A DNA stretch of 64,000 nucleotides. Origin: Pseudoclavibacter triregionum (GTDB lineage: Bacteria; Actinomycetota; Actinomycetes; Actinomycetales; Microbacteriaceae). A model generated the notes under the pieces. The model was not told where the DNA came from, did not search any database, and saw nothing but the letters and a program-made list of their open reading frames with translations. Below, one piece after another: positions 42,382 through 52,229 of the stretch (positions within the stretch are counted from its first letter, which is position 1; every line of letters begins with the position of its first letter). The position numbers and the translations under genes are program-made. The stretch is from NCBI GenBank assembly GCA_910822395.1, contig OU365335.1, positions 2,232,001 through 2,296,000 on the forward strand, given 5' to 3'.

Positions 42382-42427
42382 TCGGTCGGGCTGACAGGAT
42401 TTGAACCTGCGACCCCTTGACCCCCAG
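42382..42427. other. attL of the satellite-like element
   Basis: 46-bp sequence identical to 52184-52229. It duplicates the 3' half of the tRNA-Pro gene, from the anticodon loop to the discriminator plus four bases, and is not itself a complete tRNA. Confidence 0.92.
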
Positions 42428-42467
42428 GTTTCGGAGGGGGGTCCAGGACGGTCCGCGACCGTCCAAC

Positions 42468-42522
42468 TTCCGCATGTTTCCGGGGTTCTGGACCTCGCGG
42501 GACGACCCCGGACGATGCGGAA
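42468..42522. repeat. Interrupted inverted repeat inside attL
   Basis: TTCCGCAT/ATGCGGAA (42468-42475, 42515-42522) enclose CCGGGG/CCCCGG (42480-42485, 42506-42511). A separate GGACGGTC/GACCGTCC stem lies at 42446-42464. The stretch 42428-42657 has no gene. Confidence 0.6.
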
Positions 42523-42543
42523 TGGTGGTCAAGATGGTGGTCA
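42522..42543 (+). repeat. Left pair of integrase arm-type repeats
   Basis: ATGGTGGTCA twice, at 42522-42531 and 42534-42543. The same decamer occurs twice at the other end of the element (52090-52112). Confidence 0.7.
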
Positions 42544-42623
42544 AGACTCCCCTTCGTTCCTGACACTCCTGACACTCCTGACAGGGGGGTAGGGCAGACC
42601 GACCCCCTTCGCGCGGGGCGACG

Positions 42624-42652
42624 GAAGGGGGTGCCGATTCAGCACCCCCTTC
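42624..42652 (-). terminator. Terminator of the structural operon
   Basis: 11-bp perfect stem GAAGGGGGTGC/GCACCCCCTTC with a seven-base loop, directly after the stop of the last head gene. Confidence 0.8.
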
Positions 42653-42657
42653 ACGGT

Positions 42658-42984
42658 CTACGTCAACGCCTTCAGGACGAGCGTCATGTGATGGTCGCGC
42701 CCGTTCCGGCGTCGGATCATCGCCTGCCCGTCCGCCGCGTACACCTTCCCCCGCCACCTGATCCGGTTCTTCGACGAGTCGAACGGGACCACGGGCATGA
42801 CGGCGCGGAGCTGCTCCACGAACGAGTTCACGCCCGGCGCGACAAGCTGCGCGACCGACATATAGCCGACCTGCGCGGGCGCCGACGCGACCACCACCGG
42901 AGTCCGCCAGTCGGTCGTCGTCTCGCCGTACTGATCGGTGACGACCTTCGCGGCGATGATCTCGACCTTGTCGCGGAGCCTCAT
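42658..42984 (-). CDS. Phage head closure / head-tail joining protein
   Basis: 108-residue small beta-rich protein: MRLRDKVEIIAAKVVTDQYG, TTTDWRTPVVVASAPAQVGY, and a C-terminal GKVYAADGQAMIRRRNGRDH. Size, composition and position after the head-tail adaptor match head-closure (gp10/FII-like) proteins of siphoviral heads. It is the last gene of the operon; no tail gene follows before attL. Its ATG overlaps the stop of the upstream gene. Confidence 0.7.
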   Translation of the reverse strand: MRLRDKVEIIAAKVVTDQYGETTTDWRTPVVVASAPAQVGYMSVAQLVAPGVNSFVEQLRAVMPVVPFDSSKNRIRWRGKVYAADGQAMIRRRNGRDHHMTLVLKALT

Positions 42985-43301
42985 GCCGTCCTCCGCCGGT
43001 ACAGGTGCAGGACCGCCAGCTCGGGGAGCGTGAACCCGTTCAGGGTCGCCGGCGTCTCGTCGACATCCGCGACCTGGACCCGCTTCACCTGCTCCGGATT
43101 CGTGACGAGGCGGGCCGTCGCCGTGACTATGACCGCTGCCACGTCGGGGGCCGGCTCCATGCCGTTGAAGAAGCCGCGGCCGCGCGTGTAGGCGTAGACG
43201 AAGGCGGTGACGATGGGCAGGTGCGCCCCGGCCAGGGCGACGGTCTCAGGATCGTCGCCCCGGCCGAGGAACTGCGCCACCTGCTGCGGCGTCGCCTGCA
43301 T
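42981..43301 (-). CDS. Phage head-tail adaptor protein
   Basis: 106 residues beginning MQATPQQVAQFLGRGDDPET, with VTAFVYAYTRGRGFF near residue 35, typical of gp6/gp15-like head-tail connector (DNA-packaging adaptor) proteins. The ATG at 43301 lies just after the capsid stop; its own stop overlaps the next start, so it is part of a tightly packed head operon. Confidence 0.7.
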   Translation of the reverse strand: MQATPQQVAQFLGRGDDPETVALAGAHLPIVTAFVYAYTRGRGFFNGMEPAPDVAAVIVTATARLVTNPEQVKRVQVADVDETPATLNGFTLPELAVLHLYRRRTA

Positions 43302-43303
43302 CG

Positions 43304-50219: not shown

Positions 50220-50285
50220 GTGCCTTCCGTTCCGATTCGGGTAGACGCTGTTGCGCGTTGGAATACAACGATGGACGACTGGGGA

Positions 50286-50332
50286 TTGCGTCGTCAAACC
50301 CAAACGCCTAGACTTCATTCCGTATAGGAATG
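50286..50332 (+). promoter_or_regulatory. Repressor promoter with a palindromic operator
   Basis: TTGCGT (50286-50291), 17-base spacer, TAGACT (50309-50314), then CATTCC-GTATA-GGAATG (50316-50332) over the transcription start. In the other direction TTGTAT and TCTACC at 17-base spacing may drive the leftward operon. Confidence 0.6.
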
Positions 50333-50342
50333 GAGGTGCCGA

Positions 50343-50945
50343 GTGGCACGACTCAACAAGGGCCGCACCATCGCCGCAGAGGCGAACCTCGCGGACCGCA
50401 TCCGCATGGAGCGCGAAGCCCGGTCCCTAACCAACGAGGGACTCGCGAAGCTCATGACCGACGCCGGCTGCGCAATGCAGGGCAGTGCAATCTTCAAGAT
50501 CGAGAAGGGTGAGCCGCGCCGCAGGATCTCGGTCGACGAGCTGGTGGCGTTCGCCGCGGTGTTCGAGACCACCGTCGAGGATCTCTTGACGCCGGTCGAC
50601 CTGCTCAGGAAGGAACGGGCGAAGAAGGTCGTCGCGGACGTCGAGGCCGCACGAGAGAGGATGGTGGACGCGGCGGCCGCGCTCGTGGCGGCGTTCTCCG
50701 ATTTCTTCGATCTCGCCGGCTACGACCCTGAGCTGCGCGAGTACGCGGAGAACCACCTGTTCCCCGTAGAGGACGAGGTGGAGGACGAGTCACTGTTCAC
50801 CGTTGAGGTTGACGGCGAGCCCGTCGATGTGGACGAGTCGAAGATCAGGGAGACGTTCATGGCCTTCCAGCTCGCGATCATCGAGATGGCCGAGGGCGTG
50901 GAGAACCGCGTGATCGACGCGAACATGCGGAAGGCCGGCAAGTGA
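50343..50945 (+). CDS. XRE-family repressor of the element
   Basis: 200 residues from a GTG with GGAGG upstream. Helix-turn-helix at about 19-70 (REARSLTNEGLAKLMTDAGC, AIFKIEKGEPRRRISVDELV), then a long helical, acidic region without a LexA-type peptidase motif, so release from repression would not be by self-cleavage. It faces away from the structural operon and shares a control region with it; it is the likely master repressor, possibly antagonised by a helper-phage protein. Confidence 0.83.
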   Translation: MARLNKGRTIAAEANLADRIRMEREARSLTNEGLAKLMTDAGCAMQGSAIFKIEKGEPRRRISVDELVAFAAVFETTVEDLLTPVDLLRKERAKKVVADVEAARERMVDAAAALVAAFSDFFDLAGYDPELREYAENHLFPVEDEVEDESLFTVEVDGEPVDVDESKIRETFMAFQLAIIEMAEGVENRVIDANMRKAGK

Positions 50946-52090
50946 CGACTACGAAGCGCCGAGCGAACGGCGAGGGGTCGACGCCGACGCAGCGGAAGGA
51001 CGGGCGCTGGCAGGTCCACGTCCGCTACCGGGACACGTATGGCGTCAGCAAGCGCACGACCGCGTACGGCGCGACGCCGTCGGAGGCGACGGCGAACGCC
51101 AAGAAGATCCGCGACCGACTCGAGGAGGGCCTCCCCGCCCGCGACGCTCGCACGACCGTCGCCGCGTTCGCGTCCGCCTGGATCGACTCGGCGCTCGCGG
51201 CGAGCGACCGGAAGGAGACGACGAAGTCGCTCTACGAAACCGTCACGAAGAAGCACATCATGAACAAGAAGATCGGGACGGTCACGCTCGACGCTTTGAA
51301 GCCGTCGCACGTCGAAGCCTGGGTCGTGCAGCTCCGGAAGGACGGGCTCGCCGACTCGACCGTCCGCACCTGCTACACCGTGCTCCGCTCCATCCTTGAC
51401 ACCGCGGTGCGTGACGAGGCGCTCGCGAAGAACCCGGTCGCGGCGATCAAGCGGCCGACGGTCGCGCGGAAGGAAGCGGCGCACCTGACCACGCTGCAGG
51501 TCCGGCAGCTGCTCTCTGCCGCGTCGTCGTCGAGGTACGCGCCGCTCTTCGAGCTGCTCGTGAACACGGGCCTCCGTCGCGGTGAGGCCCTGGCCCTCAC
51601 CTGGCGCGACATCGATTTCGAGCGGTCAGTGATCCGCGTGCGCGGGACGCTCGCGAGGATCGACGGCGATCTCGTCGTCACCGACGCGAAGACGGAGAAG
51701 TCGAAGCGGTTCATCCACATGTCGCCGGCCGCTGAGCGGGTCTTCAAGGAGGTGCGCCTGCGTCAGAAGGAGGAGCGCCTGAAGGCTGGATCCGTCTGGG
51801 TCTCGACGAACTTCGTGTTCACGACTGAGACGGGCGAGCCCTGCGATCCCCGGAACGCGCTGCGCGCGCTGCAGGCGGCCGCGAAGAAGGCAGGCCTCGA
51901 GGGGATCGGGCTCCACACGCTGCGGCATTCGGCGGCGACGGTGATGATCGAGAACGGCGTCCCGCTGAAGATCGTCTCGGAGATCCTCGGGCACTCGTCA
52001 GTCGCGATCACGGGCGACGTGTACGGGCACGTCTCCCCCGAGGTCGCGGCGGATGCTCTCGACGCGCTCGGGACCGCGCTCGGCGCCTAA
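50942..52090 (+). CDS. int: Tyrosine integrase
   Basis: 382 residues. N-terminal arm-binding domain (NGEGSTPTQRKDGRWQVHVR, about 8-27), SAM-like core-binding domain (about 66-165) and a catalytic domain with Arg in TGLRRGEAL (about 210), HTLRHSAAT (His-x-x-Arg, about 326-330), a second His in LGHSS (about 349) and the nucleophile Tyr in DVYGHV (about 360). The GTG start overlaps the repressor stop. It lies next to the intact tRNA-Pro, as expected for an integrase using that site. Confidence 0.95.
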   Translation: MTTTKRRANGEGSTPTQRKDGRWQVHVRYRDTYGVSKRTTAYGATPSEATANAKKIRDRLEEGLPARDARTTVAAFASAWIDSALAASDRKETTKSLYETVTKKHIMNKKIGTVTLDALKPSHVEAWVVQLRKDGLADSTVRTCYTVLRSILDTAVRDEALAKNPVAAIKRPTVARKEAAHLTTLQVRQLLSAASSSRYAPLFELLVNTGLRRGEALALTWRDIDFERSVIRVRGTLARIDGDLVVTDAKTEKSKRFIHMSPAAERVFKEVRLRQKEERLKAGSVWVSTNFVFTTETGEPCDPRNALRALQAAAKKAGLEGIGLHTLRHSAATVMIENGVPLKIVSEILGHSSVAITGDVYGHVSPEVAADALDALGTALGA

Positions 52091-52112
52091 TGGTGGTCAA
52101 CGATGGTGGTCA
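52090..52112 (+). repeat. Right pair of integrase arm-type repeats
   Basis: ATGGTGGTCA at 52090-52099 and 52103-52112, overlapping the integrase stop codon; identical to the left pair. Confidence 0.7.
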
Positions 52113-52133
52113 GGCTCTCCCCTGAGACGCAGT

Positions 52134-52180
52134 AGAGGCCGCTCCGGATTGCTCCGAAACGGCCTCTGACCTGCGTTTTC
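52134..52180 (+). terminator. Terminator of the integrase gene
   Basis: AGAGGCCG (52134-52141) pairs with CGGCCTCT (52160-52167), followed by GTTTTC. Confidence 0.7.
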
Positions 52181-52183
52181 TTT

Positions 52184-52229
52184 TCGGTCGGGCTGACAGG
52201 ATTTGAACCTGCGACCCCTTGACCCCCAG
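52184..52229. other. attR of the satellite-like element
   Basis: 46 bp identical to 42382-42427, here forming the 3' half of the complete tRNA-Pro gene. Confidence 0.92.

What the first reader, a model, noticed from the sequence alone, without database searches (positions are those of the whole stretch)
42382..52229. Tail-less, capsid-encoding integrated element: candidate actinobacterial cf-PICI-like phage satellite
Between two 46-bp att repeats lie, in order on one strand, excisionase, a small unknown, a RepA-like ATPase, HNH nuclease, large terminase, portal, MuF-like, scaffold, a small protein, capsid, adaptor and head closure, with repressor and integrase divergent. Every gene needed for a filled head is present and intact, while tape measure, tail tube, tail fibres, lysin and holin are all absent, and the structural operon ends at a terminator 230 bases from attL. 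A full prophage that simply decayed would not normally lose the tail and lysis genes cleanly while keeping each overlap and terminator. The layout is that of capsid-forming phage-inducible islands known in other phyla, which borrow helper tails. Whether this lineage is already described in actinobacteria I cannot tell.
Basis: partly seen in the sequence, partly recalled or inferred. Interest (0 to 1): 0.9.

Follow-up and report, generated by a model that had tools for sequence, protein, structure and literature searches.

The report
Tail-less, capsid-making actinobacterial phage satellite
A 9.8-kb stretch of this bacterium's chromosome carries genes for a virus head but no recognisable tail genes, and relatives with the same plan sit in several other actinobacteria, so it is most likely an element that travels by borrowing the tails of other viruses.

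Summary
Window 42382-52229 is bounded by perfect 46-bp repeats in a tRNA-Pro gene, with integrase arm-type repeats inside both ends. It carries int, repressor, xis, RepA-like ATPase, HNH, TerL, SPP1-type portal, MuF-like protein, scaffold, HK97 capsid, adaptor and head closure; no tail or lysis gene was matched.

It is not a lone deletion remnant. An IMG/VR capsid scan gave 67 loci, 60 at 50% identity or more; 57 of those 60 lie on contigs of 12.1 kb or less. Of 19 loci tested, 12 had att repeats; 11 of those spans are 9.7-11.3 kb. TerL, portal and capsid are under purifying selection.

Best reading: a satellite that builds and fills its own head and needs helper tails, as capsid-forming PICIs do. 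No prohead protease or Pri-Rep was found, and no recognisable small terminase, so I call it a variant, not a member. Actinobacterial capsid-encoding satellites (MulchRoom, MiniFlayer) and predicted Actinomycetota PICIs are already in print.

New here: some near-identical heads carry different tail-facing adaptor genes, with breakpoints at the capsid gene's end, as expected if elements switch helper tails. Induction, particles and helper are untested.

The parts
42382..42427 (.). att repeat, structural-operon side
   Evidence: 46/46 identical to 52184-52229
42522..42543 (.). arm-type repeats, two ATGGTGGTCA
   Evidence: 4 copies in the window, expected 0.01
42559..42583 (.). CTGACACTC tandem repeat, also found beside repA
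42658..42984 (-). head closure (Hc1-like), last gene of the operon
   Evidence: PF05521 9e-6, PHROG 501 2e-9; model all-beta, pLDDT 87.9
42981..43301 (-). head-tail adaptor (Ad1-like)
   Evidence: PHROG 137 2.2e-4; position conserved in relatives
43304..44176 (-). major capsid protein, HK97 fold, 290 aa
   Evidence: PF05065 4.2e-44; TIGR01554 4e-50
44284..44454 (-). 56-aa protein of unknown function
   Evidence: open frame; no PHROG match; weak match in L011
44466..44957 (-). head scaffolding protein
   Evidence: PHROG 233 6.5e-6
44961..45488 (-). MuF-like minor head protein
   Evidence: PHROG 2494 0.065 only; C-terminal Cys/His motif by eye; homologues in the same place
45485..46813 (-). portal protein, SPP1 gp6 type
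   Evidence: PF05133 7e-34, PHROG 104 2.7e-120
46810..48273 (-). terminase large subunit
   Evidence: PHROG 9 1.6e-98, PF03354, PF20441
48270..48668 (-). HNH endonuclease
   Evidence: PHROG 7785 0.0067; conserved before TerL in relatives
48690..48800 (.). CTGACACT repeats at the end of repA, candidate origin
   Evidence: more repeated 9-mers than any of 200 shuffles, but so in only 3 of 16 regions tested
48728..49786 (-). RepA-like AAA ATPase
   Evidence: PF13481 6e-25, PHROG 6357 9e-33
49786..50040 (-). 84-aa protein of unknown function
   Evidence: no match in Pfam, PHROGs, NCBIfam or PADLOC
50037..50219 (-). excisionase / regulator, HTH_17
   Evidence: PF12728 2.9e-9, PHROG 66 7.8e-7
50343..50945 (+). 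HTH repressor without a matched peptidase domain
   Evidence: HTH_3 0.0004, no S24 match; PHROG 3 5e-6
50942..52090 (+). tyrosine integrase
   Evidence: PF00589 2e-31, PHROG 1 3.8e-77
52090..52112 (.). arm-type repeats, two ATGGTGGTCA
52184..52229 (.). att repeat, integrase side
52186..52261 (-). tRNA-Pro(GGG), intact

Best explanation
It is an integrated phage satellite that makes its own small DNA-filled head and uses the tail and lysis of a helper phage. Shown by sequence: site-specific integration in tRNA-Pro; a repressor/integrase arm opposite an xis-RepA-HNH-TerL-portal-MuF-scaffold-capsid-adaptor-closure operon; no matched tail or lysis gene; a wide lineage of similarly short relatives; purifying selection on TerL, portal and capsid. 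Inferred: the repressor, which has no matched self-cleavage domain, is lifted by a helper signal rather than by SOS. Int and Xis excise the element, and RepA replicates it, perhaps from repeats near repA or the att end. HNH and TerL cut and pump about one 10-kb unit into a scaffold-built procapsid through the portal. Ad1 and Hc1 then close the head and dock it on a helper tail, and the helper lyses the cell. Also inferred: the adaptor/closure genes are a part that is exchanged when an element changes helper tail.
For: att, tRNA and arm sites. In a same-genus genome the same tRNA-Pro with a syntenic right flank has no element gene called beside it (its left flank differs). Head set without matched tail. 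IMG/VR capsid scan: 67 loci, 60 with 50% identity or more, 57 of 60 on contigs of 12.1 kb or less. Of the 8 loci of the genome-contig scan, L048, L049, L050, L054 (through L033, the same contig) and L055 have a host gene after the last head gene, and L051 has one before int. att repeats of 23-58 bp in 12 of 19 loci tested, 11 of 12 spans 9.7-11.3 kb. Contigs with exact end repeats, so probably circular, 9.9-12.1 kb: 4. dN/dS about 0.11 (TerL), 0.17 (capsid), 0.17 (portal) against L010. 67 of 68 capsid rows of the tail-less set form one supported group apart from long-contig and reference phage rows. Adaptor exchange next to conserved capsids. In the host genome one HK97 capsid and one PF03354 terminase, both the element's, and no PF10145.
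Against: No particle, excision or helper has been seen. IMG/VR contigs are short and some are fragments (down to 3.7 kb), so absence of a tail in them is weak alone. No small terminase was recognised, although packaging usually needs one. 7 of 19 loci gave no clear att repeat, and one tail-less capsid row (L055) falls outside the group. The portal tree's separating branch has support of only 50 and the TerL tree needs 2 changes. RepA is poorly conserved against L010 (38% identity, dN 0.72, dS 0.77), and the other small genes are less constrained than the core (dN/dS 0.31 scaffold, 0.38 MuF, 0.40 HNH, 0.51 adaptor; closure 0.62 against L048). Terminase and portal are also exchanged between elements (L130), so mosaicism is not confined to the neck. 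L178 (capsid 51%) carries a lysin.
Confidence: 0.84

Rival explanations
1. Remnant of a tailed prophage that lost tail and lysis genes by one deletion.
For: TerL, portal and capsid belong to families of tailed phages; 47% of predicted actinobacterial prophages were classed as remnants in PMC10023795 (passage seen).
Against: The same gene set ends at the same place in elements at different tRNA or glnA sites, with capsids down to about 50% identity; arm sites on both ends and purifying selection on the core head genes.
Confidence: 0.04
2. The element moves in tail-less heads or by free DNA uptake, without borrowing tails.
For: No helper prophage is recognisable in the host genome by three families.
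Against: It keeps an adaptor and a head closure, whose job is to join a tail, and these genes are exchanged between elements.
Confidence: 0.06
3. The head genes serve mainly to spoil helper phage assembly (an anti-phage island), with transfer secondary.
For: Satellites often interfere with helpers (described for PICIs, PMC6092414, passages).
Against: A packaging set with terminase, portal and closure is more than interference needs; probably circular element-only contigs exist.
Confidence: 0.05
4. A mini-phage with an unrecognised tail.
For: orf84 and orf56 have no assigned function.
Against: The 9.8 kb is taken up by the listed genes and the two unknowns total 140 aa, so there is no room for a tape measure. 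In nine relatives the longest called gene inside is 491 aa or less (L216 has no att boundary, and the caller reads the lower-GC L218 and L221 poorly).
Confidence: 0.01

Closest known systems
Capsid-forming PICIs (cf-PICIs / cfPICIs)
   Same: Own capsid, portal, large terminase, HNH and connectors; no tail; int, repressor and xis; att-bounded island.
   Different: No prohead protease and no Pri-Rep matched, no recognisable small terminase; separate scaffold, SPP1-type portal, MuF-like protein. Original description (Alqurainy 2023) not held; features taken from passages of PMC10448857 and PMC10690885.
MulchRoom and MiniFlayer (Streptomyces satellites, PMC10690885; records OQ784832, OQ357865)
   Same: Actinobacterial satellites with terminase, portal, scaffold, capsid; MulchRoom also adaptor, stopper and tyrosine integrase.
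   Different: TerL shows no match to either, nor closure to MulchRoom's stopper; the portal is distant (phmmer 4e-24 and 7e-28), the capsid matches only by profile; they carry TerS and long terminal repeats; the paper reports no primase or other obvious replicase.
'Predicted Actinomycetota PICIs' cited in PMC10690885 from its ref. 8 (de Sousa 2023)
   Same: Reported to share only the portal with MulchRoom and MiniFlayer, which fits this lineage.
   Different: Lists and sequences not held, so identity with this lineage could not be tested; overlap is likely.
11-kb Mycolicibacterium aichiense phage records (Alyssa1, OR387110 and kin)
   Same: Capsid 28% identical; adaptor and stopper; ~11 kb.
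   Different: Serine integrase, tape measure gene, a 134-aa 'terminase', no portal or large terminase annotated.
Arthrobacter phage Persistence and Streptomyces phage phiC31
   Same: Among the best tailed-phage relatives of portal (41%) and TerL (33%).
   Different: Full tailed phages with protease and tail modules.

Membership tests
cf-PICI | Encodes capsid, portal, large terminase and head-tail connectors, and no tail | tested here: met
cf-PICI | Prohead serine protease | tested here: not met
   no protease match among the 14 proteins in PHROGs, nor in Pfam for the 13 scanned there; scaffold present instead
cf-PICI | Small terminase subunit | tested here: inconclusive
   no match and only 59 bp between repA and HNH, but orf84 is unassigned and small terminases diverge fast
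cf-PICI | Pri-Rep replication initiator | tested here: not met
   AAA_25 ATPase, no primase domain in Pfam; PHROG hits include primase/helicase profiles over the ATPase part
cf-PICI | AlpA homologue | tested here: inconclusive
   HTH_17 excisionase/regulator
cf-PICI | Sequence homology to characterised cf-PICIs | not tested
   reference sequences not fetched
cf-PICI | Helper-induced excision, own small capsids, helper tails | not testable with these tools
   needs bench work
PICI (general layout, PMC6092414) | int and repressor opposite xis-rep, origin after rep | tested here: inconclusive
   layout met; repeats after repA in the window, but in only 3 of 16 regions tested
MulchRoom/MiniFlayer satellites | Homologous terminase, portal, capsid | tested here: not met
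   portal only by single sequence, no TerL match
Decayed tailed prophage | Close relatives occur as full prophages | tested here: not met
   none seen among loci with capsid 50% or more that were mapped; distant capsid relatives not all checked

The most novel reading that the evidence does not exclude
A class-wide, perhaps phylum-wide, old lineage of satellites that keeps one head and swaps its neck: the tail-facing adaptor and closure genes are an exchangeable cassette, recombined at the end of the capsid gene, that fits a constant head to the tails of different helper phages. Tail choice, and so host range, would be written in two small genes.
Probability: 0.45. Interest if true: 0.78.

Novelty: new variant of a known kind. 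Interest (0 to 1): 0.62.

Why it matters
Actinobacterial satellites have been little studied, and many small prophages there are classed as remnants (PMC10023795, which itself suggests that elements under 15 kb may be satellites). This lineage turns up in seven named genera and in 11 of 394 sampled genomes of the class, the window's own included, so a share of such 'remnants' are probably working satellites. It suggests that a satellite can live with a scaffold-type head without a recognised protease, and the adaptor exchange gives a handle on how satellites choose tails.

Tried and rejected
Deletion remnant: rejected, see rivals. Origin after repA as a family feature: repeats exceed all shuffles in 3 of 16 regions only (positions in relatives chosen by hand), so kept as a possibility for the window alone. 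Alternative closure family (PHROG 13779): the structure model was poor (pLDDT 56.7), so whether it is a closure is open. Tail labels among downstream ORFs: 105 ORFs scanned, selected (+ strand only, 95 aa or more, within 4.5 kb of the capsid, unassigned, overlaps thinned) from 67 loci considered. 99 families matched and only the first 25 are listed, so single tail hits among the rest cannot be excluded. Of these ORFs ten were looked at one by one; the two with tail labels are collagen-like. Tree labels: 'tail-less' rows were chosen mainly by capsid identity, and rows covering under 60% of the model were dropped. In the neck comparison, 17 of 36 pairs with capsid 85% or more have adaptors under 60%; the pairs are not independent and some are near-copies. 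Of seven control pairs of tailed phages one (Kromp-Success, capsid 22%) is too distant to use; in the phiC31 group adaptor and closure were assigned by position. The distant capsid relatives with TerL nearby (for example L036, L040, L043) may be ordinary prophages and were not checked. Plasmid and E. coli collections were not searched.

Papers: PMC10690885 was seen as outline with abstract, sections 8, 12, 14, 17 and passages. PMC10023795, PMC11389934, PMC6092414, PMC10448857 and PMC13345588 were seen as passages only. Ten searches of the library listed, by titles and starts of abstracts, no description of this lineage; the Alqurainy 2023 and de Sousa 2023 papers (named from recall and from citing papers) are not held.
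Full report
What is there. Window 42382-52229 is a 9.8-kb integrated element. Its ends are identical 46-nt repeats, and the right copy belongs to an intact tRNA-Pro(GGG). 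ATGGTGGTCA occurs four times in the 64-kb window, two copies just inside each end, where 0.01 is expected; that is the arrangement of integrase arm sites around an attP. The genes are int and an HTH repressor on one strand. Opposite are xis, an 84-aa protein, a RepA-like AAA ATPase, HNH, TerL, portal, a MuF-like protein, scaffold, a 56-aa protein, HK97 capsid, adaptor and head closure, many of them with start-stop overlaps. Family evidence is strong for int, TerL, portal and capsid, moderate for ATPase, xis, scaffold, adaptor and closure, and weak for HNH and MuF. No protease, small terminase, tail, holin or lysin was matched. The repressor shows no S24 peptidase.

Own genome. The 2.36-Mb genome (90% complete) has one copy. 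Searches found one HK97 capsid and one PF03354 terminase, both the element's, and no PF10145 tape measure, so no resident helper is visible by these three families. A same-genus genome has the same tRNA-Pro and a syntenic right flank with no element gene called there; its left flank does not match the window's.

Relatives. I found no close DNA relative among the phage records: of 25 records hit, the 20 listed cover 1% of the query, the tRNA/att core. A TerL scan of IMG/VR found five contigs at 81-86% with the same gene order where held, and one distant one. A capsid scan found 67 loci, of which 60 share 50% identity or more (L179 over part only). 57 of these 60 lie on contigs of 12.1 kb or less; the other three contigs are 14.0, 26.2 and 27.3 kb. 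The 26-kb one holds two different elements in tandem, 83-88% identical in DNA over the compared parts. The genome-contig scan gave 8 loci: Oerskovia, Isoptericola, Janibacter, two Cryobacterium, Arthrobacter, Mycolicibacter and Blastococcus (three of the genera were looked up). Gene calls and Pfam show a host gene after the last head gene in L048 (DUF520), L049 (response regulator), L050 (epimerase), L054/L033 (GAF protein) and L055 (phosphotransferase family), and a host ATPase before int in L051, whose downstream side was poorly called. The Arthrobacter locus (L052) is a contig of its own with the same coordinates as L158, whose ends repeat exactly over 77 bases. The gene caller failed on L052 and on the element of L053, where only the HMM map was used. 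Sampling the class gave 11 of 394 genomes with a capsid match at 1e-30 or better, and the phylum 5 of 396; both counts include the window's genome and they overlap.

att and size. Of 19 loci tested, the window included, 12 have a direct repeat of 23-58 bp, in a tRNA (Pro, Leu, Ser, Lys, Arg, Met, Val, Glu) or at the 3' end of glnA (L215 by Pfam, L050 by eye). Eleven spans are 9.74 to 11.32 kb; the twelfth, a diverged element, is 8.35 kb. Seven (L048, L214, L011, L055, L216, L220, L053) gave no clear repeat. Four IMG/VR contigs have exact end repeats of 127, 77, 84 and 20 bases, so they look circular. The gene order of L148, L165 and L170 is circularly permuted, without an end overlap.

Are tails really absent? 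105 downstream ORFs from 67 loci considered (60 IMG/VR, 7 genome loci) were scanned against PHROGs. The commonest matches are head closure (8 members), PHROG 13779 of unknown function (6) and head-tail adaptor (6). The two tail-labelled ORFs that I inspected are collagen-like, between capsid and adaptor in L147 and L154; one lysin lies in L178. 99 families matched but only 25 are listed, and only + strand ORFs were taken, so this is not exhaustive. In nine loci the longest called gene inside is 491 aa or less (calling is poor in L218 and L221). Distant capsid relatives of 27-33% were not all checked for tails; one of them, L039, does carry a tape measure gene in a 9.1-kb element.

Selection and descent. 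Against L010, dN/dS is about 0.11 for TerL and 0.17 for capsid and portal, 0.31 scaffold, 0.38 MuF, 0.40 HNH and 0.51 adaptor; RepA (38% identity) gives 0.72/0.77 and closure, against L048, 0.81/1.29. In a tree of 91 capsid rows, 67 of 68 tail-less rows form one supported group apart from 15 long-contig rows and 8 references; L055 lies outside. The portal tree puts 68 of 68 on one side of a branch of support 50; the TerL tree needs two changes. The head is a mosaic: TerL is nearest to phiC31 and phiPsal1, the portal to Arthrobacter phages, and the capsid profile scores the 11-kb Mycolicibacterium phage Alyssa1 highest among the references, while the single capsid sequence scores Javan191 and RcapNL higher.

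The neck. L056 and L057 have TerL 100%, portal 100% and capsid 97% identical but adaptors only 42%. Their DNA is mostly above 90% identical from portal to capsid (a diverged stretch lies before the capsid gene) and falls to about 56% at the end of the capsid gene. L051 and L054: capsid 95%, adaptor 52%, with the same kind of drop. Window and L010: capsid 88%, adaptor 50%. Of 36 pairs with capsid 85% or more, 17 have adaptors under 60% and 3 have portals and terminases under 60%; the pairs are not independent. In six close pairs of tailed phages (capsid 88-98%) adaptors are 77-93% and closures 76-88%; in three of them, the Arthrobacter phages, the adaptor is also less conserved than the capsid. 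The gene after the adaptor varies too: PHROG 501, 13779 or 644, with 763 among weaker hits, and none in one case. This is what helper-tail switching would leave, but faster evolution of small genes explains part, and TerL and portal are exchanged too (L130).

How it probably works. Shown: integration anatomy, gene set, no matched tail genes, recurrence, selection on the core head genes. Inferred: helper-triggered derepression, excision, RepA replication, HNH-TerL packaging of a ~10-kb unit into scaffold-built heads, docking on helper tails through Ad1 and Hc1, helper lysis. CTGACACT repeats near repA and near the att end may be an origin; only 3 of 16 regions tested show such repeats.

Against the known. 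It works like a cf-PICI, but two features listed for that group were tested and not met (protease, Pri-Rep) and a third (small terminase) was not recognised, so I do not file it there. MulchRoom and MiniFlayer are the closest published kind in this phylum that I saw, but only the portal matches by single sequence. PMC10690885 reports predicted Actinomycetota PICIs sharing only the portal with them; these may well be this lineage, but their list was not held. Hence: new variant of a known kind.

Noticed in passing
   Followed up: partly
   Followed up: partly
L034, L037, L046: Further short elements (7.8, 9.6, 8.9 kb between repeats) with a distant capsid near an integrase.
   Followed up: no
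L058 / L141 (contig of 26,234 bases): Two related but different elements in tandem, apparently each with a serine recombinase (judged by eye).
   Followed up: partly
   Followed up: no
L147 5247-5936, L154 3265-4167: Collagen-like proteins coded between capsid and adaptor, perhaps head fibres.
   Followed up: no
L178 8032-8907: A lysin gene in a relative whose capsid is 51% identical.
   Followed up: no
L166, L167: Capsid lies on the strand opposite to terminase, portal and scaffold, an inverted layout.
   Followed up: no
window 38471-41754: Next to the element, outside att: helicase, TOTE-type primase-polymerase and NYN-domain gene, matching defence-associated families.
   Followed up: partly
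window 42382-42427: The att core is shared with Mycobacterium phage Giles and kin (43 bases, 100%), so unrelated phages may use the same site.
   Followed up: no
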